From: Verrucomicrobiia bacterium
GTDB lineage: Bacteria > Verrucomicrobiota > Verrucomicrobiia > Limisphaerales > JAEYXS01
Length of the DNA stretch: 64,000 bases
Assembly (NCBI GenBank): GCA_036405135.1
Contig: DASWYF010000035.1
Span: 62,001-126,000 of the forward strand
Direction: 5' to 3'
This document shows, piece by piece, positions 5,846 to 27,439 of the stretch; the stretch's first letter is position 1, and each line of letters begins with the position of its first letter. The translations under genes and the position numbers were made by a program. Below the pieces are notes generated by a model that did no database searches, had not been told where the DNA came from, and saw nothing but the letters and a program-made list of their open reading frames with translations.

Positions 5846-6415
5846 ATGACCGTGGTGCAGCCTGACGCCGCCAGCGCGGGAACGCCGCGTCCGGAAACGA
5901 TCGAGGAGCTGTTTGCAGCGCTCGAATCGCCGCTGCTCAGTTATGCCCTCAGGTTGGTGGGGGAACGCGCCCCGGCAGAGGATGTCGTCCAGGAAGCATT
6001 CATGAAGTTGCACGGACAATTCGCCGAAGTGAAAGAGCCCAGACGCTGGCTCTATCGCACGGTGCATAACCTTTCGCTGAACCACCGGCGGCAGGCGGCC
6101 AAGACGGTGCCTATGAACCCCGTCACCAGCCCCGATGGCGAAGATCACGCGGATAACAACCACAACGGCACGGACCCGGAACCCTTGCCGGATGAGCAGA
6201 TCATCCGCTGGGAAGGCATCGGCCTCGTGCGGCTGAGCTTGAGCACTTTGGATGAACGGAGCCGCGAGGTGGTGCGGTTGAAATTTGACGAAAACCTTTC
6301 TTATCAGGAGATCGCCCGGCGCACGGGGCTGAGCGCCAGTAATGTGGGTTATCTCCTGCACCATGCCCTTAAAGCGATCGCGGCAGAGCTCGCGCGGACG
6401 GGCCTCATACCATGA
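5846..6415 (+). CDS. ECF-type RNA polymerase sigma factor
   Basis: A 189-residue extracytoplasmic-function sigma factor. Region 2 is visible as YALRLVGERAPAEDVVQEAF with the following MKLHGQF. Region 4 is the helix-turn-helix stretch LDERSREVVRLKFDENLSY, then QEIARRTGLSASNVGYLLHHA. The linker is acidic and His/Asn-rich (EDHADNNHNG). Its stop overlaps the start of the next gene in an ATGA, the classic layout of a sigma factor with its anti-sigma partner. A GGAACC hexamer at 5801 could be part of an autoregulatory -35 box, but its -10 partner is unclear. It probably directs transcription of its own operon and of envelope genes elsewhere. Confidence 0.93.
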   Translation: MTVVQPDAASAGTPRPETIEELFAALESPLLSYALRLVGERAPAEDVVQEAFMKLHGQFAEVKEPRRWLYRTVHNLSLNHRRQAAKTVPMNPVTSPDGEDHADNNHNGTDPEPLPDEQIIRWEGIGLVRLSLSTLDERSREVVRLKFDENLSYQEIARRTGLSASNVGYLLHHALKAIAAELARTGLIP

Positions 6416-11378: not shown

Positions 11379-14300
11379 ATGGGAAACATCGAACACCGGT
11401 TGCACCGGCTGGCCAATACATCGAACGTCCAACATCGAGAGGCGGAGACGATTTTGCCTGGTAGCCGCCGACGTCAGTCGGCGCTGGCCGATCTTCGAGA
11501 GGGTTTGCGCGGACTGACGTCCGCGGCTACGGGACTGGCCTTGGCCGCGTCGATCTGGTGCACGCCGTTTACTGTCTCTGCAGCGCAGGCGGAGGTGAAA
11601 GATGTTTCGATCAATGGCGGAGTGCAGGATGGGAAGGCGCGCATCGTGATTGAGGGGCAGTTCGGTCCGCTCACAAGCGAGAAGGAGAAGGTGCTGTTCT
11701 CGACATCGTTGCAGCACTCGCTCTTCATCGCGCGGGACAAGCACACGCATGTGATCCAGGCGACGTTTGATATCTTGCAGGGTGAAGCGCGGGAGATACC
11801 GCTGACGATCGGCGGCGCGGGCGAGATCAAGCAGGTGACGGGCGAGAATCTTCAGGATTGGAGCGTGCGGCAGGAAGCGAATGGCACGCGGGTGCTGGTG
11901 TTGCGTCCGCGCAAGACAGACAAACCACCTTCGCAATTCACGGTGACAATCCAGGCGGAACGGAACACGGTTTTGATCGGGTCGAGTTTGCAGACGTTGA
12001 CGCTGACACCACCGCAAGCAGCGTTGCTGAATGGTTACCTGAAGGTGGAAGCTGCGCCGGAACTGGATGTGCAGCCGATGAATGTCTCGGGCCTAGTGCC
12101 GCTGGAGGCGAAGCTGTTGCCGGAGTCTTTGCGGAACTCCACCAAGCCGGAAGCGGAAGAACCGATGGCGTTTCGTTTTCATGGCGGAGCTTACACGCTA
12201 CCTTTGACGGTGAGCATCGCCGATCCGGAGGCGCGTCGCGTTGTCTTGCGTGATTTCAAGCTGGATGGGCAACTGAGCGGTCGCACGGCGGCGTTCACGC
12301 TGACGGCGACAGCACGCGTGAAGAATCCGAAGGGCGGTTCGGTGCAATTGCTCTCGGGTGATGTGGCATTGGCGGAACTGGAACGCAATGCGGACTGGCG
12401 TTTGCGTTTGGTGGATGGCCGTTACGTGTTGGTCTTTGACAAGCCGGGTGAGTATCCGTTGTGCATCAAGTTCAACGCGGCGGTACGCGATGCGGCAGAC
12501 TGGAAACGGGTGGACTTCAAGGTGGCAACGGCCGCAATGCAGCCGGTGGCATTTCAAGGATTGGCAGCAGACACGCAGTTCGCTTTTGAAGGTGCGGCCC
12601 GTCCTGAACGCAAAGGGGAAGAGTTTCAAAGTTTTCTGCCGCCGGATGGCACGGTGAAGCTCGCGTGGAAAGAGGCCAAGACGGAGACTGAAGGCAGGCT
12701 TTTTTATTCAGCGGAGATGCTGTCACAGTTGAGCATCGGCTCGGGTATGATGCGGCAGGTGGCCTTGCTGGAGGGCAAGATCATGCAGGGTGAGATGCAC
12801 ATGCTGGCTTTAAACGTGCGTGGACAGGGGAATGTCACCGCGGTGCAAGGCGCAAGCGTGCTGTCATGGAAGGTGGAGCCGCGTCCCAATACAACGGATC
12901 GCACTCTGTGGGTGAAGTTCAATCAACCGCAGAAGGATGCGTTCCTGCTTCAGGTGCAGATGCAGACGGAATTGGGCGCATTCCCACAAGCGGTCGACGC
13001 GATGTTAGTACAGCCGGAAGGTGCGACACGTTTTGCGGGGCATATGCGGGTGGTGAATCAGGGGGCAGTGCGGCTCGAGGTGGTGCAAGCATCAGGGCTT
13101 TCGCAAATCTCTCCGGAGCAGTTTCCAGAGAATGATATGACGAAGTCAGTCTTCGGTACGCAAGGGGGACAACGTTTTGCGTTCCGGTTTTCGAGTGTCG
13201 ATTTCGCGCTGCGTGTGCAGGCGGACAATGTGCTGCCGGAACTGAGTGTATCGCAGGTGATCGCGTATCACTTGGGCGAGACGGAGCTGGGCATCGATGG
13301 TGAGTTTGAGTTGGACATCCGTGAGGCACCGTTGCGTGAAGTGATTCTGCGCGTGCCGAAAGGATATGCGATCGCCGGACTTTCAGCGGGTGGCCTGAGC
13401 GATTACTTCCTCACTGAGCCTGCTGGACAGGCGGATGCGGAATTGCGTCTGGTGTACGGCACGCCGATCACGGGACGGCAGATCGTGCAGCTGCGTCTGG
13501 AACGGAATGCGGCGCTGGGGCAACCTTCTTGGGCATTACCACGCATCGAAGTGTTGAAAGCAAAATCTACGCGTGGGCATGTGGCGGTTTCGGCAGATGC
13601 GGGCTTCCGGTTGACGCCGGAGAAGACAGTCTCGCTCACGGATATCGCGACAGCCTTTTTCCCACGCAAGATCGAAGGCATCCAAGCGGCTTTCCGTTTG
13701 AGCGAGCACAATTGGGAAGCGGTGATGCGCGTGGAGCGTTTGCCGCAGTCCATCCAGGCGGATGCGTTCCATCTGTTCTCTATCGGTGAAGGCATCGCGT
13801 ATGGCAGCAGCACGATCAACTTCGCCATCTCCGGTGCACCGGTGTCCTCGTTTCTCATCTCGCTCTCGGAAGAATATTCCAACGTGGAGTTCACCGGCAA
13901 AGACCTGCGCAGTAATTGGCAGAAGACGACGAATGGCTATGTGGTCACTTTAAACACGCCTGTCTCGGGTAATTACACATTGCTCGTGACGTATGAACGG
14001 GCCTTCAAGACGCAGGGAGATACGCTGACCTTCACGGGTGCGCGGCCGATGGATGCGCAGAATGAACAGGGGCATACGCTGGTGGTGAGTGCGTATCAAT
14101 TTCAAGTGAAACCCTCGAATGTGTCCGCAACTCTGCTGCCATTGGAGACGGCGGAAGTGCCGGCAGAGTATCGCCTGTTCTTCGATGCGCCGATCTTGGC
14201 GGCGTATCGTTACAATGCGCGTCCGTTCAATCTGCAACTTGGATTAAGTCCGCTCGCGCAAGGTGAAACGGTTAGCCTCATCGTGGATCGCGCGATCCTT

Positions 14301-17300
14301 TCCACCCGCATCTCACAGGATGGCGAGGTGCTGACGGATGTGCGGTATTTCGTGAAGAACCGCGGCAATCCGCATTTCCGCGTAAGCCTGCCGTCGGACA
14401 CGACCTTGTGGTCGGTGACGGTGAATGGTGCCACGGTCGTACCGGTGAAGGATGGCGATGCGAATCTGATCCCGCTGCCACAACGGGCTGATCCGAGCTC
14501 AGTGCAGACGGTGGATATGAAGCTGGCGTCGCGCTCCAAGACCCCGGGACGTATCACGGCGCAAGCGCCGACAGTGACAGTGCCCGTGCTGTTGGCTGAG
14601 TGGGCGATGTCACCGGATGAAGGACATCGGCTGATCTATCGCGGAGGGACGTTGGCTCCAGAAGCAGGCGTGACGGATATGTCCGGCTTCACGGGCATCG
14701 CACGCGTGCTGTTCAGTCATGAGCGGGGCATGGGCAAATTTTTAATGATGTTGATCTTCATCGGGTTTGGTGTGGCGGTCTGGCGCTGGGCGGGAGGTGA
14801 AGGTGCGTATCGTTTCGGACCAAGACACTTTGGGGGCACGTTAATAGGGGGCGTGGCCCTGTTCCTGGCGGTGGTGCAATTCGCTGCTTTGCTGAATGTG
14901 GCGGCAAGGCAGAAGCAGGCACCACCGCCAGCTCTTTCCTTCCTCGCACCGGTGCAACAGAGCCAGAGCATCTTGAGAGTGGAAGTGGCGAATGTGCCCG
15001 CAACGATGGCGACAACGACCAGCCTAACGCAAGCATGGCCGGTGGCGCTGGCCTTGGTGGTGTGGGGAGCGACATTGCTGATGTTCCAAGGGTTTCTGCG
15101 CGCAGCAGGCATCGCGTTGGGCTGGACGTTGATCGGGTGGACGGCACTGCGCTGGCCGAATGGAGCGGAGCTGTTCCTGTTCGTGTGTGCGCTGTTTCTT
15201 TTCGTGCATCTGGTGCTGCCGGCATTGCTGCGCCTGTTCAAGGTGCCGCAGCCGCCTGTTACGCCTCCGACTGCCGAGGGAGATTCTCCTGCGGCCACGA
15301 CCAAAGCGGCGTTGTTGCTCGGCGGGTTGCTTTTCATCAATGGATTTTCGCTGAATGCGGCAATACCTCCGGTGACGTTACCGGGAACAGTTACTCCCGA
15401 AGCGGGGATGGCGGAGTCCGTGCTGCAAATGATCCGCGTGGAGGATAAATTCGCTTTTTCCAATGTAAGAATCCACTGGGAGGGAGTTAAGGGGCAGACT
15501 TTGCCGCTTCTCTATGAGCCGGCTGTGCTGACCAAGCTGATGTATCCGACCAACCATCTGACGCTGGTGCAAAGCACGTTGAATGGAAAACGAGTGCATC
15601 AGTTGATCGCCAATGCCACTGGGCCGTATGACATCGAGGTGCAGTATCAGATGCAGGTGATAACGCGTGAGGGTTTGAATGGCATCGAGTTGCCGGCACA
15701 GCATGGGCTAATCAACCGTGTCACTCTGATCATGCCTCAGCTGGATGTGGATGTAGTGGCTCCTGCGGCAGTATCCATCACCAGGCGCCCTCAGAACGGT
15801 GCAGCATCTACGTTCACAGCGATAGTGCTGGCACCGACGGCGAATGCATGGATCGGGTGGAAGCCGCGCAGCCGTGATGTGAAGACAGAGAAGGCGGTGT
15901 TCTATGTGGAGACGCACCAGCTCTTCACGCCGGTGGCCGGAGTGATCGAAGGTGTGCATCGCGTGGAGGTGCGTCCAGCACAGGGTGAGCTGAATGAAAT
16001 CGTGATGGTGGTGCCGACGGGAGCGACGATCTCGGATGTCTATGATGCTTCTCCTGCGGGCAAGGCCTCGGTGGTTTCACTGTGGCGTTTTGATCCTGAC
16101 AAACGCGAGCTGCGGGTAGGGTTGAATCCGGCCCAATCCAAGCCGTTCGCATTGATCGTGCGGTCACAGGTGACGACAGGGCCGTTGCCGTTCGAGCAGA
16201 GCGCGGGCTTGCTGCGTGTGAATGGTGCGGCGGGACAGCTTGGTTCAGTGGGTGTCGCGACGGGTTCAGAAGTGCAACTGGATGATGTGAAGGCGGAGGC
16301 GTTGTCACCGCTGAACTTGGAGGATTTTCCGGGGCATGTGTTACAGCCGTTGCGCAATCAAGTCGCGGGTCTGACATTGCGACGCGCGTTCCGTTCGGCG
16401 GATGCCTTGGGAACAGTGACGGTGAAGGCATCGCCGGTGGAGCCAGATGTGCGCGTGGAGACGCAGGAGACGTTATCGTTGAGCGAAGATCGCACAGTGC
16501 TGGCGGTGAACGCTTCCATGGCGGTGACGCGTGCGGGCATCTTCCGCGTGAGCTTTGTGCTGCCGACGGGATTGGATGTGGAGTCGATCAATGGCGCGGC
16601 GATCTCGCACTGGACGGAGTTGAAGGCGGATGAAGGACGTATCATCACATTGCATCTGAAGGGGAAGACGGAGGGGCAGACGCAGTTCAGCGTGAATCTG
16701 GCTGGACCGGGAACGAAAGCGGCGAAAGGTGTCGTGGCACCGCGTGTCATGTTCCGTGAAGCGAGCAAGCAGCGCGGGCAACTGGTGATCGTACCAGAGC
16801 AAGGCATGCGCTTGCAGGTGGCCACACGCGATGGCGTGACACAGCTTGATCCGCAGAAATCGGGCATCCGGCAAAAGGGCGTGCTGGTGTTCCGTTTGCT
16901 ACAGCCGCAGTGGGCACTGGGTTTGGACATTGAGCAAGTGGATGCGTGGGTGCAGGTAACGGGCTTGCAGCATGTGACGGTGAGCGAGGCGCAGGTGAAG
17001 GTGGCGGCGAATCTGCAATACCAGATAGAGAACACGGGCCTGAAGGCGTTGCGCGTGCAGGTGCCGGTGAATGCGGAAGGCGTGCGATTCAAGGGCGAAC
17101 AGGTGGCGGATTTCCTCGTGGTGCCGAACTCGCAGACGAATAGCTGGCAGGTGTGGGAGGTGAAGCTGCATCGCCGCATCATCGGCAAATACATGCTGCA
17201 AGCGGGTTGGCAAACACCAGTAACCGAAGCGGCGACGAACACGGTGGTGCAGGGGATTCAGGCGTTGGATGCGAATCTGCAACGCGGATTCGTGACGGTG

Positions 17301-18572
17301 CAATCAAGCGGACGTTTGCAGGTGCAGGCGCAGCTGTTGTCGAATGCGTTGCAACCAGCGGAATGGCAGAGCATTCCGCGTGTGTTATTGCAGGATATTC
17401 CGGCGGCGACGGCGAATCTCACGTATCGACTGGTGGAGCCGGGTTATCAACTGGTGTTGCAACTCGAACGGCATGAAGCGACGAAGCTGTTACCTGCGCG
17501 GGTGAACAACGTGACGCTCAGTTCGGTGATCTCGGATGAGGGTGTGATGCTCACGCAGGTGAAGATGGACCTCGTGCCGGGTGATAAGCGGTTGTTGAAC
17601 TTCACCTTGCCTAAGGATGCGCAGTTCTGGTTTGCATTCGTGAACCAGAAAGGTGTGTGGCCGTGGCGTGATGCGGACAAGATTTTGCTGCCGCTGGAGC
17701 AGCAATCGAAGTCCGATCAGCCGACGACAGTGGAGCTGTTCTACTCCAGCCGCATCGGCAAGGCAGGCACGAGCAAGCTGGATTTGTCTTTGCATGGGCC
17801 GAAGTTTGATCTGCCGCTGGAGAACATCGTGTGGCAGGTATATCTGAATACGAAGTGGGAGTTGAAAGAGTGGGGCGGCACGATGCAGTTGCAGCAGAAT
17901 ACTTCCGTGGCACAACCGGTGGCGGTGGATGCGCAATCGTATCTGGCGAATGAGATGAGCCTGAATCGCGAGAAGACGCGGACGGCGGAGCAGATGCTGA
18001 GCCTTGGTAATCAGTGGTTGGAGAAGGGTGATCCGCAACAGGCGCGCCGGGCGTTCCAGAGCGCGTATGGCTTGAGCGGACATGACAATGCGTTCAACGA
18101 AGATGCGCGCGTGCAGTTGCATAACTTGAAATTGCAGCAGGCATTGGTGGGGTTGAATGTGCGTCAATCAGCAGCGGCTGGTGATGGTGCGGTGGTTCCG
18201 GGCAATATCAAGGAGTTGAGGAATCGCAAGGAACTCAACTACTCGCAACAGGAAGCGAAACAGATCATCGAGGCGAACACGGCGGATGATAACGCGGTGC
18301 TGATGCGGTTGGCAGAACGGATCGTGCAACAGCAAGACGCAGTGGTGCCGAATCCGGTGGAGATCCGCGCGACGATTCCACAGCAGGGACGCATGCTGAC
18401 TTTCCGCCGTTCCGTGCAGGTGGATACGTGGACGGACCTGACGGTGGAACTGGAGACGCGGGCGTTCAAGACGGCCTCGATGGGGTTACGGGCGGGGATG
18501 TTGGGGGCATCGTTTGTAGGGTTTATGCTGGTGGCTTGGGTGAGTGGCCGCAGGAGAATGACCAATGTCTAA
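11379..18572 (+). CDS. Giant membrane protein of unknown function
   Basis: A 2397-residue protein, 20 bp downstream of the vWA fusion gene with a strong AAAGGAGAG site. A long, charged N-terminal region precedes a signal-like segment (SAATGLALAASIWCTPFTVSA, about residues 45-65). Residues 70-1115 are beta-rich and extracytoplasmic in character. Five or six membrane spans cluster at about 1119-1328, a second beta-rich region follows (1330-2200), then a short TPR-like helical part (about 2205-2270) and a last span near 2368-2390. I recognise no named domain. The gene order suggests it is the effector or structural partner of the sigma/vWA pair, but this is inference. The first 30 codons and the last four (MTNV) lie within sequence that looks like dispersed intergenic repeat. 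Confidence 0.85.
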   Translation: MGNIEHRLHRLANTSNVQHREAETILPGSRRRQSALADLREGLRGLTSAATGLALAASIWCTPFTVSAAQAEVKDVSINGGVQDGKARIVIEGQFGPLTSEKEKVLFSTSLQHSLFIARDKHTHVIQATFDILQGEAREIPLTIGGAGEIKQVTGENLQDWSVRQEANGTRVLVLRPRKTDKPPSQFTVTIQAERNTVLIGSSLQTLTLTPPQAALLNGYLKVEAAPELDVQPMNVSGLVPLEAKLLPESLRNSTKPEAEEPMAFRFHGGAYTLPLTVSIADPEARRVVLRDFKLDGQLSGRTAAFTLTATARVKNPKGGSVQLLSGDVALAELERNADWRLRLVDGRYVLVFDKPGEYPLCIKFNAAVRDAADWKRVDFKVATAAMQPVAFQGLAADTQFAFEGAARPERKGEEFQSFLPPDGTVKLAWKEAKTETEGRLFYSAEMLSQLSIGSGMMRQVALLEGKIMQGEMHMLALNVRGQGNVTAVQGASVLSWKVEPRPNTTDRTLWVKFNQPQKDAFLLQVQMQTELGAFPQAVDAMLVQPEGATRFAGHMRVVNQGAVRLEVVQASGLSQISPEQFPENDMTKSVFGTQGGQRFAFRFSSVDFALRVQADNVLPELSVSQVIAYHLGETELGIDGEFELDIREAPLREVILRVPKGYAIAGLSAGGLSDYFLTEPAGQADAELRLVYGTPITGRQIVQLRLERNAALGQPSWALPRIEVLKAKSTRGHVAVSADAGFRLTPEKTVSLTDIATAFFPRKIEGIQAAFRLSEHNWEAVMRVERLPQSIQADAFHLFSIGEGIAYGSSTINFAISGAPVSSFLISLSEEYSNVEFTGKDLRSNWQKTTNGYVVTLNTPVSGNYTLLVTYERAFKTQGDTLTFTGARPMDAQNEQGHTLVVSAYQFQVKPSNVSATLLPLETAEVPAEYRLFFDAPILAAYRYNARPFNLQLGLSPLAQGETVSLIVDRAILSTRISQDGEVLTDVRYFVKNRGNPHFRVSLPSDTTLWSVTVNGATVVPVKDGDANLIPLPQRADPSSVQTVDMKLASRSKTPGRITAQAPTVTVPVLLAEWAMSPDEGHRLIYRGGTLAPEAGVTDMSGFTGIARVLFSHERGMGKFLMMLIFIGFGVAVWRWAGGEGAYRFGPRHFGGTLIGGVALFLAVVQFAALLNVAARQKQAPPPALSFLAPVQQSQSILRVEVANVPATMATTTSLTQAWPVALALVVWGATLLMFQGFLRAAGIALGWTLIGWTALRWPNGAELFLFVCALFLFVHLVLPALLRLFKVPQPPVTPPTAEGDSPAATTKAALLLGGLLFINGFSLNAAIPPVTLPGTVTPEAGMAESVLQMIRVEDKFAFSNVRIHWEGVKGQTLPLLYEPAVLTKLMYPTNHLTLVQSTLNGKRVHQLIANATGPYDIEVQYQMQVITREGLNGIELPAQHGLINRVTLIMPQLDVDVVAPAAVSITRRPQNGAASTFTAIVLAPTANAWIGWKPRSRDVKTEKAVFYVETHQLFTPVAGVIEGVHRVEVRPAQGELNEIVMVVPTGATISDVYDASPAGKASVVSLWRFDPDKRELRVGLNPAQSKPFALIVRSQVTTGPLPFEQSAGLLRVNGAAGQLGSVGVATGSEVQLDDVKAEALSPLNLEDFPGHVLQPLRNQVAGLTLRRAFRSADALGTVTVKASPVEPDVRVETQETLSLSEDRTVLAVNASMAVTRAGIFRVSFVLPTGLDVESINGAAISHWTELKADEGRIITLHLKGKTEGQTQFSVNLAGPGTKAAKGVVAPRVMFREASKQRGQLVIVPEQGMRLQVATRDGVTQLDPQKSGIRQKGVLVFRLLQPQWALGLDIEQVDAWVQVTGLQHVTVSEAQVKVAANLQYQIENTGLKALRVQVPVNAEGVRFKGEQVADFLVVPNSQTNSWQVWEVKLHRRIIGKYMLQAGWQTPVTEAATNTVVQGIQALDANLQRGFVTVQSSGRLQVQAQLLSNALQPAEWQSIPRVLLQDIPAATANLTYRLVEPGYQLVLQLERHEATKLLPARVNNVTLSSVISDEGVMLTQVKMDLVPGDKRLLNFTLPKDAQFWFAFVNQKGVWPWRDADKILLPLEQQSKSDQPTTVELFYSSRIGKAGTSKLDLSLHGPKFDLPLENIVWQVYLNTKWELKEWGGTMQLQQNTSVAQPVAVDAQSYLANEMSLNREKTRTAEQMLSLGNQWLEKGDPQQARRAFQSAYGLSGHDNAFNEDARVQLHNLKLQQALVGLNVRQSAAAGDGAVVPGNIKELRNRKELNYSQQEAKQIIEANTADDNAVLMRLAERIVQQQDAVVPNPVEIRATIPQQGRMLTFRRSVQVDTWTDLTVELETRAFKTASMGLRAGMLGASFVGFMLVAWVSGRRRMTNV

Positions 18573-18917: not shown

Positions 18918-19391
18918 ATGTCGGCACTCGATAAATCAGAAGCGAAACGTCGCTTCATGGATTTTCTGGCGAAGAAGAATCTGCGAATCACCTCGCAGCG
19001 CCAAGCTATTGTCGACACGGTTTTCAGCACGGACAAGCATTTCACCGCAGAGGAGTTGCTGGAGTGGTCACGGCAAAAGGATAAGTCGGTCTCTCGTGCC
19101 ACGGTGTATCGCACACTGCCTTTGCTGACGGAGAGCGGGCTGGTGCATGAGATGGATTTCGGGAAGGACTACAAGTTCTACGACCCGAATTACGCGGATC
19201 ATCCTCATCATAACCACCTAATTTGCCAGGATTGCGAACGGATCGTGGAATTCGAGAGTGACAAGATCGAGGAGATTGAGAGCGAGATCAGCCAGAAGCT
19301 GGGGTTTTCGATGAAGTCGCAGCGTTTGCAGATATCGGCATCGTGTGACCAGTTGAAGAAACTGGGAGCGTGCAAGAACAAGACGTGTTGA
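18918..19391 (+). CDS. Fur-family transcriptional regulator
   Basis: A 157-residue ferric-uptake-regulator-type repressor. The N-terminal winged helix is plain: LRITSQRQAIVDTVF, then SVSRATVYRTLPLLTESGLV. The metal-binding and dimerisation part carries the typical HPHHNHLICQDCERIVEFES, where the His cluster and the CxxC pair bind metal, and a Cys-rich tail (residues about 143-157). Length is normal for the family. Whether it senses iron, zinc or peroxide cannot be told from sequence. The promoter lies almost on top of the start codon, so a start at the internal ATG (18957) is possible, but residues 1-13 contain the helix usually found before the winged helix. It ends at a bidirectional terminator shared with the convergent kinase gene. 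Confidence 0.92.
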   Translation: MSALDKSEAKRRFMDFLAKKNLRITSQRQAIVDTVFSTDKHFTAEELLEWSRQKDKSVSRATVYRTLPLLTESGLVHEMDFGKDYKFYDPNYADHPHHNHLICQDCERIVEFESDKIEEIESEISQKLGFSMKSQRLQISASCDQLKKLGACKNKTC

Positions 19392-19484: not shown

Positions 19485-19511
19485 AAAAGCCCCGCGAGTT
19501 GCGGGGCTTTT
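19485..19511. terminator. Bidirectional terminator between fur and the kinase gene
   Basis: Stem AAAAGCCCCGC/GCGGGGCTTTT with loop GAGTT. The A-tract on one side and T-tract on the other allow it to serve both convergent genes. Confidence 0.85.
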
Positions 19512-19541: not shown

Positions 19542-20906
19542 TTATTTGCTCAGGAAAAAGAACAGTAAGAACACGACTATGAGGACCACGGCGCAGATGA
19601 GGATGAGTTTCGTGTTGTCCTTGCCTGCCGGAGCAGGAGCGGGCGCAGGTGCAGCTTGCTGTGGTTGACGCACAGATGGAGCGGTGCGCGGGGCCGTGAC
19701 CGAAGACTTCGGCGCGTTGGAGCTGGACCAGGCAGGTGTCGGCGTGGGGGTGACGCTGAGACCACCGCCGGGCTTCGTTGCCGGAGCGGAGGTTGAAGCG
19801 GGTTTTGGAGTGGTCGCCGGTGTCGGTGCAGGGCGTGAACCGGTGACGGGCGTGGCTGGTCGTGAGCCGGTGGCCGGCCGACTGCCGAGCGGTTCGGAAT
19901 CTGGCGGTGTGCCGCCGGCCCACCATCCACCATCGGCTGCGCCAGCACCACCTGCAGCCGGAGCCGCCGCAGCAGCACCTGCGGGAATGGCGCTGATGAT
20001 GGTGTCCATCGTGCCATTGTCGAGGGCGACCATGACGTCTTCGTAAATGGGAACTTTGGAAACATCCGCCAGGCAGGCGCGTTCGAGCAATTCGGCGAGC
20101 TTTTTGACTTTGTCGTCCTTGTTTTCCTTGAGCCGCTTCAAGAGTTTTGACTGGCCGGGATTCTTGTAGTCCGAAGACAGGAACAAGAGGTTGTCTCCAG
20201 TGTAGAAATCCTTGAAGAGGGTTGGGTCGCTGGCTAGGCCGAGCAACGAGGTGTGTATGACCAAGGCGCCAAAGTTGTCCAGGTCTTCGTTGTAGAAATC
20301 CGAGGTGCGGCGCGGATGCTGGAAGTTCGCATGGCCCAATTCCGGGGCTTTGCCGCGGAAGGCCGGGGTGTACATGCCGTCGTAGTCTACGAGGCGGATC
20401 TCGTTATCGGGCGTGACCATGACGTTACCGTGCTGGAGATCGCCGTGGGCGAGCTGGTTGTCACGCAGGCCCTTCATGACGACGCGCAACTTCTGGGCGA
20501 GGTCGTTGAGGAGGTCGGGTTTGTCGAAGATCTCTTCGAGATGCTGGTTAAGGGGGAGACCTTCGACCCATTGCATCTTCACGACGGGATACCATTCGTT
20601 GCGGACCTTGATGCCGCGCAGGATGTATTCAAACCCGACGAGGCTGCTCAGGCCGAGGCCGAGGAGTTGCTGGCTCATGCGGGCGTAGCGGCCCTGCTGG
20701 CCAAGCACTTGACGGACGAAACAACGGATGGCGTAACGGCCTTGGGCGGATGTGACCGAATAAACGCTGGCGAAGTTACCAGACATGACCTTGGGGAGGC
20801 CGAGCATGTCGCATTTGACTTCGCTCTCCTTGAGTTCCGCATCCTCGAAGCAGATGTGGGGATTCTGGATGGAGTCTTGATAATCTGTGTGAGAAGGCCA
20901 GTTCAT
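19542..20906 (-). CDS. Membrane-anchored protein kinase of a TerY-P-type triad
   Basis: A 454-residue protein with an N-terminal kinase domain (about residues 35-300), a Pro/Thr/Ala-rich linker (about 305-420) and one C-terminal membrane span (LILICAVVLIVVFLLFFF). The glycine loop is SGNFASVYSV. The catalytic loop HGDLQHGN (Asp156, Asn161) and metal-binding DYDG (Asp174) are present. The usual VAIK lysine is replaced by arginine (YAIRCF, Arg61). It follows a PP2C-like phosphatase and a vWA protein on the same strand, the three-gene set that Anantharaman, Iyer and Aravind described as the TerY-P triad linked to tellurium-resistance stress systems. No ter genes are in this window. Confidence 0.87.
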   Translation of the reverse strand: MNWPSHTDYQDSIQNPHICFEDAELKESEVKCDMLGLPKVMSGNFASVYSVTSAQGRYAIRCFVRQVLGQQGRYARMSQQLLGLGLSSLVGFEYILRGIKVRNEWYPVVKMQWVEGLPLNQHLEEIFDKPDLLNDLAQKLRVVMKGLRDNQLAHGDLQHGNVMVTPDNEIRLVDYDGMYTPAFRGKAPELGHANFQHPRRTSDFYNEDLDNFGALVIHTSLLGLASDPTLFKDFYTGDNLLFLSSDYKNPGQSKLLKRLKENKDDKVKKLAELLERACLADVSKVPIYEDVMVALDNGTMDTIISAIPAGAAAAAPAAGGAGAADGGWWAGGTPPDSEPLGSRPATGSRPATPVTGSRPAPTPATTPKPASTSAPATKPGGGLSVTPTPTPAWSSSNAPKSSVTAPRTAPSVRQPQQAAPAPAPAPAGKDNTKLILICAVVLIVVFLLFFFLSK

Positions 20907-20937
20907 GGTGGTGGCGGGTTGGCGGCGATGGCGTGTC

Positions 20938-21753
20938 TCAGGATTGCGGCGGTTTCGACGCTTTCCATTTGAAAAGGATTACGGTTGTGTCGTCATTGCG
21001 CATGCCGAAATCTTTGCGCAGTTTGGCGACGAATTTGGCGTAGTCGGCCTCATCTTTTATCTCCTGCAGCTGTTGCCAGGGCTTGGAGCCGGCTTCGTAG
21101 CGTTGGAGGAACCATTTGGCGATGGCGTCAGTGGCCAGAATGAAAACATCGTTCTCCTGATAATCTCCCTGTAAGTGCTGGACTTGCGCCCAGACGGGTT
21201 GGTTGCGGTTGGGATTGCTGGAGAGGAGGCAGGGGCGGCTGTCAAACTGGGCGGCTTTTTCAATGGGCCAGGTTTTGATCAGCGTGTTGTTGCGTATGTG
21301 AAAGAGATTGCTGTCACCGACTGTTATGGCGCGCCACTGGGGAAGCTGCGGGCCTTTATCGCCACCACCGAAGAGCCGTTGGAAGAAAGACGGTTTCTCG
21401 GGCGGCTTGGGCGGTTCAAAGCGGATGCCGAGCAGGGTGGCGAAGGCGCCGGTGCGGGCTTTTTCCTCAGCGTACCAAGGCAAGCGGTCCCAAGCGATGC
21501 TGGAGTGCCACTCTTTTTGCAGCGGGCTTAACCACTGAACGAGAGCACTGGCATCAGGCGGGTTGCCGGGCGGCGGAGACGCGGTGAAGCGCTGGACGAG
21601 GCATTGAGCCCAAAGGTCTGCGAATGAAGACTCGGTGGCGCCATCCGCGATGGCAAAATGGCCTTTCTCGGGGGCACAACTGAAGGCGTCTTCGTATTCG
21701 TCCGGGCTATAGCCCTCCTTGGGCACCCAGAATACTTTCTCAGTGGCTTCCAC
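20938..21753 (-). CDS. PP2C-like (PPM) serine/threonine phosphatase
   Basis: A 271-residue protein. Metal-binding motifs of PPM phosphatases are visible: IADGATES (Asp37, Gly38), AITVGDSNLF, VFILATDAI and the terminal NDDTTVILF. A Pro-rich insert with FFQRLFGGGD (around residues 115-135) interrupts the core. It probably reverses phosphorylation by the neighbouring kinase, whose gene starts 31 bp downstream. The vWA gene ends 13 bp upstream. No signal peptide or membrane span is seen, so it should be cytoplasmic, like the kinase domain. Confidence 0.85.
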   Translation of the reverse strand: MEATEKVFWVPKEGYSPDEYEDAFSCAPEKGHFAIADGATESSFADLWAQCLVQRFTASPPPGNPPDASALVQWLSPLQKEWHSSIAWDRLPWYAEEKARTGAFATLLGIRFEPPKPPEKPSFFQRLFGGGDKGPQLPQWRAITVGDSNLFHIRNNTLIKTWPIEKAAQFDSRPCLLSSNPNRNQPVWAQVQHLQGDYQENDVFILATDAIAKWFLQRYEAGSKPWQQLQEIKDEADYAKFVAKLRKDFGMRNDDTTVILFKWKASKPPQS

Positions 21754-21766
21754 GGGCTTTTTTTTA

Positions 21767-22603
21767 TTAGCGCAAATTGCTGGCGCGGGTACCGATGTCC
21801 AAGAACCGGATCAATTCTACGAGGTCCGCATTGAAAGCGAATCCGCGTGAGTTCTCGCCGAGCATGATATTTTCATTGCGGGCGAGGTTACGCATGCTGG
21901 CTGGAAGGGTGCTGGACACCTGGAAGAGTGTCCGGGCGAATTCATCCGGCAAATCGTTGTCTGTCTCGGGGAAAATGATGGGTTGCACCGGCTGGCTGGA
22001 GATATGGCAGTTCAGCAGCAGTACATTGCCATCCACCGTGGTGAGGCTGGTCAAAGCCTCTGCCTGCGGGACGGGGCCGAAGTCCGTGGCTTCACCGTCA
22101 GAGATGTTGATGACGATGGGTGGATAGGAATACTGGTGGTTGGAAACCCAGCTTGAAAGGATGTGGTGGGCCAAGTCCAAAGCGGCGCCCATGGGGGTGG
22201 TGCCTTTGGCCTGCGGCTCGAACCAGACGGGGAACTTCACTTTCTGGGTGATCACGCCACCTGCGCCATCATCAATCTGTTTCACGCGTTCTTCCACGCG
22301 GGCGGGGGAATTGGCCACTTCGCTCAGAGGGACGATGTCACGACCGGCGAGCGGACCGCTGAAAGCGGGACCGACTTGCGAGCCGTAACCGATCACGCAG
22401 ACTTCGTAGAAGTTGCGGATGCCTTCGCCGCGGGCGCATTTGATGATGAGGTTATGCAGCAGGCGGTTGATGGCGTCCGCCACGCTGTCGCATTTGCGCT
22501 TGCCATCGCTGCCAGCAATGGGCTCGACCATGGAGCCCGACTGGTCAACGAGGAAGACAAACGCGCTGGGGTTCGTCCGGCTGATCTCCGCTGTATAAGC
22601 CAT
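21767..22603 (-). CDS. vWA domain protein (TerY-like)
   Basis: A 278-residue von Willebrand factor A protein that is nearly all vWA domain. The MIDAS is complete: FLVDQSGSM (Asp20), the threonine in KGTTPMGAAL and the aspartate in NISDGEATD. The start is taken at 22603 (MAYTAEIS), because the fold begins there and the longer in-frame extension to 22678 has no homologous character. It is the first gene of the vWA-PP2C-kinase operon and would act as the metal-dependent protein-binding subunit. The promoter must lie in 22604-22961, shared with the divergent pilus operon. Confidence 0.87.
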   Translation of the reverse strand: MAYTAEISRTNPSAFVFLVDQSGSMVEPIAGSDGKRKCDSVADAINRLLHNLIIKCARGEGIRNFYEVCVIGYGSQVGPAFSGPLAGRDIVPLSEVANSPARVEERVKQIDDGAGGVITQKVKFPVWFEPQAKGTTPMGAALDLAHHILSSWVSNHQYSYPPIVINISDGEATDFGPVPQAEALTSLTTVDGNVLLLNCHISSQPVQPIIFPETDNDLPDEFARTLFQVSSTLPASMRNLARNENIMLGENSRGFAFNADLVELIRFLDIGTRASNLR

Positions 22604-22961
22604 ATAAAAACTCTTTTCTGATAAACCCGGGAAGGGGTGCTGACTCCGGGTGCAAAATGGAGTGCTGGCACCGCACACGCGATTTCATACTAAGTGTTTC
22701 ATGGTAAATCAATGTTATTTCTGCGAGAGTTGAATCGAAGGGATGGGAGGGGTGGAGGTCGGGATTATCGCATTTTGGCCTGAAAATGTGAATTTGAGCA
22801 AAATCAGGGCAGTTGTCCTGCGTGGGTGTACGAAAAATCTTCAGTGCCAATTGGGTGAAACTACGCATAGACGGGTAAAGAAAGTATGGTAGGATATCTT
22901 TTTCACATTCAGCAGATTGTGACTTGCATTTAAACTGGCGACCCGTTACAAAGCGGTCGTC
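22604..22961. other. Divergent intergenic region, no gene seen
   Basis: 358 bp between the vWA triad (leftward) and pilM (rightward). I see no ORF, repeat or strong hairpin. Promoters for both operons must be here, but none stands out; TTGCAT near 22924 with TACAAA 17 bp on is only a weak candidate for the pil operon. Confidence 0.5.
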
Positions 22962-24041
22962 ATGGCGCTACCATTTCTAAGTAATTCGGGCAAGCGGCGG
23001 GACCAGGCGGTGGTGGTTGATTTGGGGACGCGAGTAACCAAGGCAGCTTCCATTCAACGCAAAGGCGAAGCCTATGTATTGACGGGTTTTGCGATGGTTG
23101 ACGCTCCTGTTTACGACCGCGGAATCTCCCCTGACATCCTTGCTGAGCATCTCAAAGCTGTTATGCAGCAGTTGGGTGTGCGCACTAAGCATATCGTGGT
23201 GGTTCTGGGGGTTGGTGACAGTATTTTGCGCACGGCGGAGCTGCCGATGGTGGGGGTGAATGACATGCGAATGATGCTGCGTTTAAATTCCAAGAATTAT
23301 CTGCAGCAGGATTTTCCGGATTATCTTTTTGATTGCCATATCTTGCTGGGGGGTGGTCCGCTGGATGCTAGCAAGGCGGGTGCTGATGGCGGGGTTAAAA
23401 CTCAGGTCAAGGTGAAGGCTTTGGTGGGGGGTGCCAAGCGGCAGTTGACGGAGGATGTGAAGCTGGCGGGCAAGAATGCTGGTTTTACGGTTGATGTGGT
23501 CACTTCTGGTCTGATTGGTCCGGCAAATGCTTTCGAGATGGCGATGCCGGATGTGTTCTCGAAAGAGGTGGTGGCGCTGGTTGATTTTGGTTACAAGAAT
23601 TCCACCATCAGTATTCTGATGATGGGTGAGTTGATGTTGACCCGTGTGGTGGGTTTCGGTGCGGCGAAGCTGACGACTGGTATCGCTGAATCTTTGGGGA
23701 TCAGCAATGCTGAAGCGGAAGGCATCAAGGTGGGGATGCCGCAGGAGGTGGAGTCGACTATTCAGCCGTTGTTGACTCCATTGGGTCGCGAGTTGCGTGC
23801 TTCGATTGACTTTTTTGAGCATCAGCAGGACAAAACGGTGAGTCAGGTGTTTTTCTCGGGCGGTTCTGCTCGTTCAGAATATATCATCAATGCGCTTCAA
23901 TCGGAGTTGATGGTTCCATGCAAGGCGTGGAATCCGACGGTTTTCATGACGCCGGGATTGCCTCCGGCTCAGTTGGGTGAACTGGAGCAGGTCGCGCCGC
24001 AGTTGGTGGTGGCGATCGGTGGCGCCATGGCTGCATTCTAA
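22962..24041 (+). CDS. pilM: Type IV pilus assembly protein PilM-like (actin-like ATPase)
   Basis: A 359-residue member of the PilM/FtsA actin-like superfamily. The phosphate-1 motif is VVVDLGTRVTKAASI near residue 18, with a second nucleotide motif VVALVDFGYKNSTISIL near 205 and FSGGSARSEYI near 300 (adenosine motif). PilM is the cytoplasmic platform that binds the N-terminus of PilN and passes on signals from the pilus ATPases. It heads a run of five genes with gaps of only a few bases. In Akkermansia the equivalent gene is Amuc_1101. The classical N-terminal FGLDIG is replaced by a longer lead, as in other Verrucomicrobiota. Confidence 0.87.
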   Translation: MALPFLSNSGKRRDQAVVVDLGTRVTKAASIQRKGEAYVLTGFAMVDAPVYDRGISPDILAEHLKAVMQQLGVRTKHIVVVLGVGDSILRTAELPMVGVNDMRMMLRLNSKNYLQQDFPDYLFDCHILLGGGPLDASKAGADGGVKTQVKVKALVGGAKRQLTEDVKLAGKNAGFTVDVVTSGLIGPANAFEMAMPDVFSKEVVALVDFGYKNSTISILMMGELMLTRVVGFGAAKLTTGIAESLGISNAEAEGIKVGMPQEVESTIQPLLTPLGRELRASIDFFEHQQDKTVSQVFFSGGSARSEYIINALQSELMVPCKAWNPTVFMTPGLPPAQLGELEQVAPQLVVAIGGAMAAF

Positions 24042-24044
24042 AGT

Positions 24045-24701
24045 ATGCCAATCAAAATCAATTTGCTGGCTGAGGAGCAGCTTACTGAGGAGCTGCGCAG
24101 GAAAGATCCTGTCAAGCGGGGTGTCTATGTCGCGGTCGCGCTGCTGGTGTTGATGCTCCTTTGGGCGGGGGTGAGCTGGTTGGGACTCTCTAAAGAGAAG
24201 GCTAGGCTGGTGGATGTCAATGCCACACTGGCCAGTCTGGAGAAGGATGCCAAGCTGGCTGAGGGCAATCAGAAAAAGATAAAGGACAACCAGTATAAGA
24301 TGGACATGCTGAAGAAGATGTCTGCGGTGCGGCCTTTGTGGGCGCCGGTGCTGGATACTTTGCAGCGTGTTTCGGTTGAGGATGTGCATGTGTTGAGGAT
24401 TCGCGTGGAGCAGGTTTACCATGTGACGCCAGCGATCGTTCCGGCGCGCGGCTCGGGTGGGAAGCCTAAGCCAGCCTCGGCCCGTCAGGTCATGTTGATG
24501 ATCATCGAGGCGCAGGATAACAGTGAGCGCCTGGACAGTTACAGCAAGTTGCGCGAGCAGCTCTCTGTGGCACTGAAAGAACATTTGGGAACCAATGGGA
24601 CGGTTTCCTTGAAAACTTTGAATCAAGCCCGTGAGAATGCTGACGGAAAGAAGTATCTGACCTTCACGCTGGAATGCGGCTTCACGGAGGTCAACCGCTA
24701 A
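24045..24701 (+). CDS. pilN: PilN-like inner-membrane protein
   Basis: A 218-residue bitopic protein. It opens with MPIKINLLAEEQ, close to the conserved INLLP motif by which PilN binds PilM. One membrane span follows (VAVALLVLMLLWAGVSWLGL, about 28-47), then a coiled coil and a periplasmic ferredoxin-like domain. It starts 3 bp after pilM. Together with the next gene product it should form the PilN/PilO alignment complex linking the cytoplasmic platform to the outer-membrane secretin. Confidence 0.82.
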   Translation: MPIKINLLAEEQLTEELRRKDPVKRGVYVAVALLVLMLLWAGVSWLGLSKEKARLVDVNATLASLEKDAKLAEGNQKKIKDNQYKMDMLKKMSAVRPLWAPVLDTLQRVSVEDVHVLRIRVEQVYHVTPAIVPARGSGGKPKPASARQVMLMIIEAQDNSERLDSYSKLREQLSVALKEHLGTNGTVSLKTLNQARENADGKKYLTFTLECGFTEVNR

Positions 24702-24702
24702 C

Positions 24703-25296
24703 ATGAACAAGATTTCCAAAGAAAAGAGGGATCAGTTGATCGCCCTGGCAGGTGGCACTCTGGTTGTCTTGGGGTTGGTTTACTGGCTGGTGATAGGTGC
24801 TATGGCCAAGTCGACGGGGGGAGTCCGGGCGGCGGCTGATGGTGTCCAGGAGTCGGTGGATAAAGCCGCCAAATTAAAAGCAGATTCGCCCAAGATACAA
24901 GCAGAGCTGGATGATTCGCGCGCTGCACTGGAAGCGTTGGAAAAGGACATGGCCACTGGTGACCTGTATTCATGGGTGATCATGACGCTGAACAAGTTCA
25001 AGCAGGATAACGCTCACGCGGTGGACATCCAGAACATCAGCCGTGAGGAGCGTGTGCCCATCGGCTTTTTCGGTGAATACCCGTATGATGCAGTGAAATA
25101 TCAGGTGAAAGGTGCTGCATATTATCATGACTTCGGCAAGTTTCTTGCTAACCTCGAAAATGCGTTTCCGTTCGCGCGGGTGCAAAACATGGATTTAAGT
25201 CCAGAAGGCGGGGTCCTCACGGGGCCTGAAGCAGAAAAACTCGCTTTCAGATTTGAGCTGGTTGTGCCGCTCAAGCCAAAGGAAACTAGCAAATGA
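24703..25296 (+). CDS. pilO: PilO-like inner-membrane protein
   Basis: A 197-residue protein with a single N-terminal membrane span (LIALAGGTLVVLGLVYWLVI), a coiled-coil stretch (about 45-90) and a small alpha/beta periplasmic domain. Size, topology and position right after pilN and before a short Pro-rich exported protein fit PilO. In the Akkermansia cluster the gene at this place is Amuc_1100, known as a surface-exposed TLR2-activating protein; the present protein is shorter, so I only note that the position matches. Confidence 0.7.
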   Translation: MNKISKEKRDQLIALAGGTLVVLGLVYWLVIGAMAKSTGGVRAAADGVQESVDKAAKLKADSPKIQAELDDSRAALEALEKDMATGDLYSWVIMTLNKFKQDNAHAVDIQNISREERVPIGFFGEYPYDAVKYQVKGAAYYHDFGKFLANLENAFPFARVQNMDLSPEGGVLTGPEAEKLAFRFELVVPLKPKETSK

Positions 25297-25802
25297 AATC
25301 AAATCTTTTGCAAACTGCTTGGAAGCTGGCGGCCATTGTGGCTGTAATCAGTGCGCCTTTGGTGGCGGGGGCGGCGGCGGCTCCGGCCAAGCCAGCGCCT
25401 GCCAAGGATCCTGAACCTAAGAAATCTGTTTTCGCAACGGATCCCAAAGCGGGCAAGGATCCTTTCTTTCCCAAGTCGGAACGCTGGAATCCTCCGCCGA
25501 AAGTGGTTGCTCCGGTGGTGACTCCGACTCCGGGTGGTACGTCCCCCGTTCCTCCTCCTGTGGTCAAGAAAGATCCTTATAAGAACTTTGAATTGAAAGG
25601 CTTTGTCGGGGTGGGGAACAACCGTGTGGTGACGATTTCTTCCGGGCTGAAAAATTACATTGTGGGGTTGGGGGAAAGCAAACTTGCGAGCACCCCTGAT
25701 GGTCCGGTCCGTTTCAAGGTCGTGCGTTTCTCTGACACCGGTGTTTTCATTTTGGTGGAAGGGGAGAAACAGGAGAAGGAACTCTCACTTCCGACTCCTT
25801 GA
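25293..25802 (+). CDS. PilP-like exported protein of the pilus cluster
   Basis: A 169-residue protein with a signal peptide (LAAIVAVISAPLVAGAAAAP), a Pro/Lys-rich linker and a small C-terminal beta domain (about residues 90-165: KGFVGVGNNRVVTISSGLKN and FKVVRFSDTGVFILVEGEKQ). This is the layout of PilP, the periplasmic link between PilN/O and the secretin PilQ, although it lacks a lipobox. It overlaps the upstream gene by ATGA and precedes the secretin gene directly. It would be the counterpart of Amuc_1099 by position. Assignment rests on architecture and place more than on motif identity. Confidence 0.65.
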   Translation: MKSNLLQTAWKLAAIVAVISAPLVAGAAAAPAKPAPAKDPEPKKSVFATDPKAGKDPFFPKSERWNPPPKVVAPVVTPTPGGTSPVPPPVVKKDPYKNFELKGFVGVGNNRVVTISSGLKNYIVGLGESKLASTPDGPVRFKVVRFSDTGVFILVEGEKQEKELSLPTP

Positions 25803-25849
25803 TGCAGGGTGCAATAATTAGGAAAAATAAATTTAAAACACAGCAGGCA

Positions 25850-27439
25850 ATGAAAATCAAAGCGTTGACGATCATCACGGCGGGGCTTATCGCCATCAGC
25901 ATGGGGGTGTCTGCCCAGACCACACCGACGACAGCCAAAGCGGAAGAGGCACAGGAATCCCGCGGAGAGGTGGTGCCGTTGATCACCTTCGACGATACCC
26001 CGCTCACCGATGTCATTACGACGCTGGCCCGGCAGGCCGGCATCAACTTCCAGTTCGACCCGCGTGTCACCACGACGCAAGTGGGTCCAAACGGTGCTCC
26101 GCTGCCGCCGCCGACGATTTCCATCCGCTTTGAGAATGTCACGGCCTTGGATGCCTTTGAAGCCGTTCTTGAAAACCATGGTTTGCAGTTCGTGCCAAAT
26201 GTGAAGACCAAAATAGGTCGCGTGGCGCCGAAGGATCCCAAGGCGCTCGAGCCGCTGGTCAGCCAGATCTTCCAGCTCCGCTATACGAGTCCTACGAACA
26301 TCGTGCCTGCGGTGCAGGCTACCTTCAGTGACACTCGCGCCAAGGTGTTGGCGGATGTTCGTTCCAGCAAGGTGCTGGTGACTGCGGTGGAGCGTGATTT
26401 GAAGAATGTGGAAAAGATCATCTCAGAGCTGGATACGGCCACGAAGCAAGTGCTCATTGAGGCTCGTATCGTAGAGACGGCCCGCAACCCAAGCACGATC
26501 AAGGGTATCGACTGGGGTGGTACTCTCCGCGCCCAGAACTTCACTTTCGGCAATGGTATCACGACGGGCAATACGACGACTACGTTCCCGGGGACAACGA
26601 CTTCTACGACCCAGCAGACTCCGTTGGGCCCTGTGACCACTACGACCACATCTCCGGCTTCTTCAACGACGTCGTTAGATACGATTTTGGGTGGTGGCGG
26701 GTTCACGGCTAACACGAAGAACGGTGTCTTCCCTGGCATCGGCTTCCTGAATGCGGATGGCGTTTCCGGCGTGCTTTCCTTCTTCAATGAAGATTCGGAC
26801 AGTGAAGTGGTGGCCACTCCACGCACGGTGACGATGGACAACCAGCTGGCGACCCTGTCAGTGACGCGCGCTTTTCCGATCTTTGAGGTGACGCCCGGTT
26901 CGGCGAACACGCCTGCTGCTGCCCAAGTGACTTATACCAACGTCGGCACCATCCTGCAAGTGACGCCGCGAATCACAGCGGACAGCAATGTGTTCCTGCA
27001 TGTCATCCCGGAAGTCTCCAACATCGATGGCAAAGACACACAGACCATCAGCAGCGAGACGTTTGAAGCGAACATCTACGCCCTGCGCAAGATGGAAACC
27101 CAAGTGCTGATTCCGAGCGGTAACACGCTGGTGATGGGCGGTTTGGTGAGTGACAACACGACCAAGTCCTATGCCAAGGTGCCGGTGCTGGGGGATGCCC
27201 CAGTCTTCAGCCGCCTGTTTCGCAGGGATTCCAAGTCCCGCATCAAGGTGAACCTGATCATCTTTGTGACTCCGACGATCGTTCAGGAGTATGACTATCA
27301 CTATACGCCGACAGATTACCTGCGTAACAATGTGCAGGACCAGAATGCGCCTAAGACTTGGGTGGCGCCTGGTGATGAGGACTGGTCGGCTTGGGATTCC
27401 GGCAAGCCCAAGGATTGGAAGAAGAGCACGAAGAAATGA
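25850..27439 (+). CDS. pilQ: Outer-membrane secretin (PilQ/GspD family)
   Basis: A protein of 530 residues from ATG 25850, chosen because a signal peptide (MKIKALTIITAGLIAISMGV) begins there; an in-frame ATG at 25802 would overlap the previous stop. It has an STN-like N-terminal domain (ITFDDTPLTDVITTLARQAG), an N1-type domain (NIVPAVQATFSDTRAKVLAD, KVLVTAVERDLKNVEKII), and the secretin core ending in VPVLGDAPVFSRLFR and VNLIIFVTPTIV. A Thr/Ser-rich insert (about residues 235-285) interrupts the core entry and may be a flexible gate or surface loop. It forms the outer-membrane pore for the pilus system coded upstream. Confidence 0.88.
   Translation: MKIKALTIITAGLIAISMGVSAQTTPTTAKAEEAQESRGEVVPLITFDDTPLTDVITTLARQAGINFQFDPRVTTTQVGPNGAPLPPPTISIRFENVTALDAFEAVLENHGLQFVPNVKTKIGRVAPKDPKALEPLVSQIFQLRYTSPTNIVPAVQATFSDTRAKVLADVRSSKVLVTAVERDLKNVEKIISELDTATKQVLIEARIVETARNPSTIKGIDWGGTLRAQNFTFGNGITTGNTTTTFPGTTTSTTQQTPLGPVTTTTTSPASSTTSLDTILGGGGFTANTKNGVFPGIGFLNADGVSGVLSFFNEDSDSEVVATPRTVTMDNQLATLSVTRAFPIFEVTPGSANTPAAAQVTYTNVGTILQVTPRITADSNVFLHVIPEVSNIDGKDTQTISSETFEANIYALRKMETQVLIPSGNTLVMGGLVSDNTTKSYAKVPVLGDAPVFSRLFRRDSKSRIKVNLIIFVTPTIVQEYDYHYTPTDYLRNNVQDQNAPKTWVAPGDEDWSAWDSGKPKDWKKSTKK

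What the first reader, a model, noticed from the sequence alone, without database searches (positions are those of the whole stretch)
19542..22603. Stand-alone vWA / PP2C / membrane-anchored kinase triad
Three adjacent minus-strand genes with 13- and 31-bp gaps code a minimal vWA protein with intact MIDAS, a PPM phosphatase with its metal motifs and a kinase ending in a membrane span. This matches the TerY-P triad described by Anantharaman, Iyer and Aravind, there linked to tellurium-resistance proteins. Here no ter genes are near and the kinase is tied to the membrane, which points to a separate signalling role at the envelope.
Basis: partly seen in the sequence, partly recalled or inferred. 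Interest (0 to 1): 0.65.

Follow-up and report, generated by a model that had tools for sequence, protein, structure and literature searches.

The report
Membrane-anchored TerY-P kinase-phosphatase triad
Three neighbouring bacterial genes encode a kinase anchored in the inner membrane, a phosphatase that could reverse its work and a metal-site adaptor; this is a known type of switch, shown elsewhere to protect cells from viruses, here in an unusual form that in some relatives sits beside genes for a pilus or secretion machine.

Summary
The three minus-strand genes form a TerY-P triad: all three match PADLOC's TerY-P models, catalytic and metal residues are conserved, and kinase and PP2C folds are predicted with confidence. 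The kinase ends in a disordered Pro/Ala linker and one C-terminal helix instead of an OB-fold. No TerD gene exists in the genome.

The interpretation needs correcting. Stand-alone TerY-P triads protect bacteria from T7-like phages (PMC7699616, PMC10889362, PMC11090510). Membrane anchoring is not peculiar to this locus: all 14 complete kinases of its clade have a span after the kinase domain, as do OB-fold kinases in three Bacteroidota loci.

New here: within the clade the kinase tail is a swappable membrane module (single anchor, multi-span, span plus WD40 propeller). The triad abuts a pilM-N-O-secretin operon in 3 of 13 genera, in two orientations, the only orthologous neighbourhood recurring between genera. 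No defence-gene enrichment was seen nearby.

Verdict: new variant of a known kind. Its output (phage/stress defence, or control of the pilus/secretion platform) is unresolved.

The parts
21767..22603 (-). vWA protein (TerY-like), 278 aa, MIDAS D20-x-S22-x-S24 / T136 / D169
   Evidence: PADLOC TerY 4.8e-100 over profile 1-277 of 277; MIDAS conserved in relatives
20938..21753 (-). PP2C/PPM phosphatase, 271 aa, GTG start, metal-site Asp residues intact
   Evidence: PADLOC PP2C 8.6e-41; AlphaFold2 pLDDT 92.5; Foldseek best match PppA 6jkv 8.3e-11, then tPphA, PstP; conserved residues
19989..20906 (-). kinase catalytic domain (residues about 1-306); H154-x-D156 ... N161 and D174-Y-D176-G; Arg61 at the usual ATP-binding lysine position
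   Evidence: PADLOC STK_OB 3.5e-75 profile 1-296/562; model pLDDT mostly above 85; VIA-align Z 16.9 to PKR, 16.5 to PknB
19542..19958 (-). kinase tail: Pro/Ala/Ser-rich linker predicted disordered (about 317-429) and C-terminal membrane helix (432-453)
   Evidence: pLDDT under 50 over 317-360 and 362-429, helix 432-453; hydropathy 3.61
22604..22723 (-). 5' leader of the vWA gene, highly conserved within the genus; promoter position not settled
   Evidence: alignment with L055 and L053; not recognisably conserved outside the genus
19485..19511 (.). bidirectional terminator-like hairpin closing the triad operon (convergent with a FUR-family gene)
   Evidence: 12-pair stem with T tail, both strands
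22962..27439 (+). divergent neighbour operon: PilM (22962-24041), PilN-position protein (24045-24701), PilO/GspM-position protein (24703-25296), small protein (25293-25802), secretin (25799-27439); candidate functional partner, not part of the triad
   Evidence: PilM_2 9.5e-26, Secretin 6.9e-40, T2SSM 0.005 below cut-off; PilN/PilO named by position only; recurs beside the triad in three genera

Best explanation
The locus is a stand-alone TerY-P phospho-switch held at the inner membrane. The tail-anchored kinase faces the cytoplasm and phosphorylates Ser/Thr targets, and probably itself; the PP2C protein removes these phosphates; the vWA protein, through its metal site, holds the complex or a target and sets which activity wins. 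The most likely output is a protective stress or antiphage response triggered at the membrane, as for TerY-P triads tested elsewhere, with the kinase's variable tail (anchor, multi-span or propeller) deciding what is sensed. Shown here: gene order, family membership, intact active sites, predicted folds, predicted anchor, tail swapping, patchy distribution. Inferred: enzyme activities, topology, mutual action of the three proteins, trigger and output.
For: All three proteins match the PADLOC TerY-P models. The triad is accessory: 19 of 320 genomes of the order, 3 of 240 of a phylum sample including the window's own genome. Phage protection is reported for TerY-P in other bacteria (PMC7699616; PMC10889362; PMC11090510; passages only). 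Catalytic residues conserved; folds predicted. 14 of 14 complete clade kinases carry a span after the kinase domain.
Against: Neighbours are not enriched in defence genes: among 99 order neighbours, 11 PADLOC families that look like about four proteins; among 40 of 45 window genes, 6 families; among 100 control genes, 24 families. The OB-fold of the described antiphage form is absent. Within the order the triad tree broadly follows pilM, more vertical than expected of a defence gene. The usual ATP-site lysine is Arg here, as in 24 of 34 kinases.
Confidence: 0.5

Rival explanations
1. The triad regulates the adjacent PilMNO-secretin platform (type IV pilus or type II secretion): the anchored kinase and PP2C control assembly by phosphorylating PilM or a membrane partner, with the vWA protein bridging to it.
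For: Triad adjacent to pilM in 3 of 13 clade genera, divergent in the window's genus (window, L055) and co-directional in G294 and G397. These are the only orthologous neighbours recurring between genera. Upstream of pilM is otherwise variable: none of 32 other pilM loci read has a triad there. Under random insertion a triple recurrence of any gene has probability about 1e-4. The adjacent forms are not one clade.
Against: 10 of 13 genera, including the closest relative G243, lack the adjacency. In the window the operons are divergent. The null treats genera as independent, but the triad looks largely vertically inherited, so one ancestral adjacency followed by losses is possible. In G294 the vWA frame has an in-frame stop and one PP2C motif Gly is Arg, so that copy may be decayed or mis-assembled.
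Confidence: 0.25
2. A house-keeping phospho-switch of unknown target, with neighbours that are there by chance.
For: Several triads lie among unrelated housekeeping genes: chorismate synthase, RNase E/G, DsbD, adenylate kinase, a DinG-type helicase.
Against: Present in only 19 of 320 order genomes; recurrent pil adjacency.
Confidence: 0.2
3. Part of a tellurite/Ter metal-stress system.
For: TerY family match; TerY-P is described as involved in tellurite resistance (PMC11090510 passage).
Against: No TerD in the genome; TerB only 2 weak matches on other contigs. TerC was not searched.
Confidence: 0.05

Closest known systems
TerY-P triad in the broad sense (Anantharaman, Iyer and Aravind 2012; paper not held, known through PMC11090510 and PMC4978471 passages)
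   Same: TerY-like vWA, PP2C and protein kinase, adjacent and in the same order
   Different: No ter, McrBC-like or nuclease genes found beside it; kinase tail is linker plus single anchor instead of zinc ribbon or OB-fold
Stand-alone antiphage TerY-P with OB-fold kinase (Gao 2020, seen only through PMC7699616 and PMC11090510 passages; PADLOC STK_OB)
   Same: Three genes, kinase domain of the same family; three Bacteroidota OB-type relatives (L034, L038, L041) also end in a predicted span
   Different: OB-fold absent: only profile 1-296 of 562 is matched, whereas four OB-type kinases match to profile position 490-540
PpkA/PppA phosphorylation pathway of type VI secretion (recalled, apart from the fold match)
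   Same: Membrane kinase and PP2C working as an antagonistic pair on an envelope machine; PppA is the best fold match of the phosphatase (6jkv)
   Different: No sequence family link shown; T6SS genes not searched for
TerY-P inside CoCoNuT type II/III-A systems (PMC11090510 passages)
   Same: Triad composition
   Different: Kinase there carries a C-terminal zinc ribbon; no CxxC pair in the window's kinase tail

Membership tests
TerY-P triad (broad) | TerY-like vWA with intact MIDAS | tested here: met
   PADLOC TerY 4.8e-100 full length; MIDAS
TerY-P triad (broad) | adjacent PP2C phosphatase with metal residues | tested here: met
   PADLOC 8.6e-41, fold, residues; Pfam alone misses it
TerY-P triad (broad) | adjacent protein kinase with catalytic Asp and metal Asp | tested here: met
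   the ATP-site Lys is Arg, as in 24 of 34 kinases
TerY-P triad (broad) | antagonistic phosphorylation and dephosphorylation | not testable with these tools
   needs biochemistry
Stand-alone OB-fold antiphage TerY-P (STK_OB) | C-terminal OB-fold on the kinase | tested here: not met
   match ends at profile 296 of 562; residues 317-429 predicted disordered
Stand-alone OB-fold antiphage TerY-P (STK_OB) | protection from phage | not testable with these tools
   needs plating assay
Stand-alone OB-fold antiphage TerY-P (STK_OB) | found among defence genes | tested here: not met
   no enrichment against control
CoCoNuT-associated TerY-P | zinc ribbon on the kinase | tested here: not met
   no CxxC in the tail
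CoCoNuT-associated TerY-P | McrB/CnuH/CnuE genes nearby | tested here: inconclusive
   no such hit in the Pfam and PADLOC scans of neighbours, but not every gene was scanned with Pfam
Ter (tellurite) system | TerD-family proteins | tested here: not met
   0 matches in the own genome
Type IV pilus/secretion regulator | adjacency to pilM-N-O-secretin conserved across lineages | tested here: inconclusive
   3 of 13 genera; not one clade

The most novel reading that the evidence does not exclude
A TerY-P triad, so far known from tellurite and phage defence, serves here as a membrane-anchored phospho-switch on the PilMNO-secretin envelope machine. In this clade the kinase tail (anchor, multi-span or span plus WD40 propeller) is an exchangeable module that ties one conserved vWA-PP2C-kinase core to different membrane inputs, possibly coupling phage defence to a pilus or secretion platform.
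Probability: 0.22. Interest if true: 0.7.

Novelty: new variant of a known kind. Interest (0 to 1): 0.42.

Why it matters
TerY-P triads protect bacteria from phages by a mechanism that the papers seen here do not explain. If the kinase of many such triads works from the membrane, trigger and target should be sought there. The recurrent pilM neighbour offers one concrete candidate, open to a simple deletion test.

Tried and rejected
Chance ORFs: rejected, the triad order is conserved across phyla. Ter system: TerD absent. Defence island: no enrichment over control. Prophage or mobile element: no relative of the vWA confirmed in viral contigs; the kinase is found on only 2 of 72,556 plasmid records, and so is an OB-type kinase. 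A leader RNA shared across the clade: upstream sequence is conserved only within the genus. A relocated ATP-site lysine: K110 is Lys in 31 of 34 rows, but by recalled kinase anatomy it sits next to the gatekeeper and faces away from ATP; not pursued. Hot spot upstream of pilM: upstream genes vary, the commonest being a LysR-type regulator cluster in 10 loci, so a hot spot is not excluded. pilM was called in 32 of the 40 fetched regions; the 8 without a call were dropped from that comparison. Four paper searches showed no paper linking TerY to pili: 7 papers hold TerY-P, and none of the 15 listed holds TerY; I did not read those 7 for pili, so this is not proof that the link is unpublished. The 2012 and 2020 source papers are not held and are cited through other papers or recall.

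Full report
WHAT IS THERE. Three minus-strand genes occupy 19542-22603: a vWA protein (278 aa), a PP2C-like protein (271 aa, GTG start) and a kinase (454 aa), with gaps of 13 and 31 bp. A strong bidirectional terminator-like hairpin at 19485-19511 closes the operon towards a convergent FUR-family gene at 18918-19391. Upstream, 358 bp separate the vWA gene from a divergent pilM gene. The 120 bp before the vWA start are almost unchanged within the genus but not recognisable outside it.

FAMILY. Pfam alone is nearly blind here: the kinase is under cut-off and the PP2C unseen. PADLOC identifies TerY (4.8e-100, full length), PP2C (8.6e-41) and STK_OB (3.5e-75), the last only over profile 1-296 of 562. 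Structure supports this. The kinase model is confident for residues 1-306, disordered over 317-429 and helical at 432-453; the domain matches protein kinases (Foldseek best E 4.2e-8; VIA-align Z 16.9 to PKR, rmsd 3.7, 252 aligned; Z 16.5 to PknB, rmsd 3.6, 246 aligned). The PP2C model (pLDDT 92.5) matches PppA of T6SS, tPphA and PstP. Across relatives the MIDAS, the PP2C aspartates and the kinase HxD....N and DYDG residues are invariant wherever a residue is aligned (34 kinase, 39 vWA and 24 PP2C rows, the best match of each locus; matches of 150 residues or fewer were dropped). The usual ATP-binding lysine (naming recalled) is Arg in 24 of 34 kinases and Lys in 10; Arg also occurs outside this clade, so it is a family trait and not decay of this copy.

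DISTRIBUTION. TerY occurs in 19 of 320 genomes of the order, in 13 of 97 near relatives and, with the window's vWA as query, in 3 of 240 genomes of a phylum sample, the own genome included. A genome-contig scan gave 26 loci from Verrucomicrobiota, Chloroflexota, Actinomycetota, Myxococcota, Bacteroidota, Cyanobacteriota, Planctomycetota and others; the three genes keep their order in almost all. In the vWA tree 16 of the 19 order genomes form one clade (98/99); G507, G509 and G543 fall outside it. The sister of the window's genus is G243 (combined tree 100/99). A pilM tree shows the same close pairs, W with G243 (100/99) and G246 with G303 (96/90), so within the order the triad looks mostly inherited with many losses.

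THE KINASE TAIL IS A SWAPPABLE MEMBRANE MODULE. Of 15 clade kinases on hand, one (L054) is cut by its contig end; all 14 complete ones have at least one predicted span after the kinase domain. Single terminal anchor: W, L053, L058, L062. Two or three spans: L050, L051, L060, L063. Span plus propeller: L049, L052, L057, L061 (Pfam on what appear to be the same contigs, L018, L022, L023, L020) and L056, L059 (by a crude motif count only). Outside the clade, tails include zinc ribbons (L026, Pfam DZR), OB-type tails matched by the STK_OB model (L034, L035, L041, L067), spans plus coiled coil with a helix-hairpin-helix-like motif (L028, L030, L032, L048, by eye and motif only), and propeller proteins of about 1,800 residues (L037, L040). 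Three Bacteroidota OB-type kinases (L034, L038, L041) also end in a span (L038 is called OB-type by likeness only). Kinases without a span include L026, L035, L036, L065, L067 and two of three in L033. So a membrane tether is common in TerY-P kinases and is not evidence for a separate system; the passages I read describe only OB-fold and zinc-ribbon tails.

NEIGHBOURHOOD. No TerD anywhere in the genome; TerB two weak matches elsewhere. PADLOC scans at E 1e-10 show no defence enrichment: 40 of 45 complete window genes gave 6 families, 99 neighbours (the nearest nine or fewer of at least 100 aa around 14 triads) gave 11 families, 100 control genes upstream of pilM gave 24 families. Triads lie beside chorismate synthase, RNase E/G, DsbD, adenylate kinase or a DinG-type helicase in different genera. 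The one orthologous neighbourhood that recurs between genera is a pilM-N-O-secretin operon; one other recurring cluster, of proteins of about 500 aa in three groups, is at different places and was not identified. The pil operon is divergent from the triad in the window and in G241 (L055), and co-directional and directly downstream of the kinase in G294 (L061) and G397 (L062). This is 3 of 13 genera. G240 (L053) and G303 (L054) have contig ends at the relevant side; for G303 pilM lies on another contig with a different upstream gene. None of 32 other pilM loci has a triad upstream, six of these being in genomes that carry a triad elsewhere. A random-insertion model gives about 1e-4 for any gene recurring three times, but it assumes independence, which vertical descent weakens. 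The adjacent forms are not one clade (AU p 4.5e-83); at least three changes are needed, but gain and loss cannot be told apart. Against the link: 10 genera lack it, the closest relative among them, and the G294 copy has an in-frame stop in its vWA gene and an altered PP2C motif Gly, through decay or assembly error. The genome encodes many T2SSE-family ATPases elsewhere (12 matches), so a pilus or secretion machine is plausible; which one is not settled.

MECHANISM. Best supported: a kinase-phosphatase switch held at the inner membrane by the kinase tail, with the vWA protein as metal-dependent adaptor. Biochemistry is inferred. For output, the literature passages give phage protection for TerY-P triads in other bacteria: against T7-like phages (PMC7699616) and against Autographiviridae in PAO1, where most cells survive (PMC10889362). 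I put a protective response first (0.5), control of the neighbouring pil/secretion platform second (0.25) and an unlinked house-keeping switch third (0.2).

VERDICT. A real, correctly described TerY-P triad; a new variant by its kinase tail; not a member of the OB-fold antiphage subtype, since that feature was tested and not met, though it may well work like one. The pilM adjacency is the most interesting new fact and is still weak.

Noticed in passing
window 6412-11358: A 1648-aa protein with a YfbK-type vWA domain and a polysaccharide-export (Poly_export) domain, followed by a 2397-aa protein (11379-18572) without any Pfam match: a second, unrelated vWA protein close to the triad.
   Followed up: no
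L022:6454-8745, L018:9659-11827, L020:2016-4487, L023:9823-12261: TerY-P kinases fused through a membrane span to a WD40 beta-propeller; the propeller's side of the membrane is unknown.
   Followed up: partly
L037 and L040 (Singulisphaera contig): TerY-P kinases of up to 1806 aa with a span and a very long propeller-like region, and a 688-aa protein with the vWA match.
   Followed up: no
L033:9595-14439: Three TerY-P kinase genes in tandem behind one vWA-PP2C pair; the middle one has lost the catalytic HGD motif (reads HGT) and may be a pseudokinase.
   Followed up: no
L061:278-1165: vWA gene of G294 interrupted by an in-frame TGA, and Gly of the PP2C DG motif replaced by Arg: decay or assembly error.
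   Followed up: partly
L065:3797-5662: Divergent TerY-P kinase whose tail resembles a formylglycine-generating/sulfatase-modifying domain (by eye).
   Followed up: no
window 30692-32188: Response regulator with a sigma-54 activation domain directly after the pil and NHL-repeat genes, on the opposite strand; could control the pil operon.
   Followed up: no
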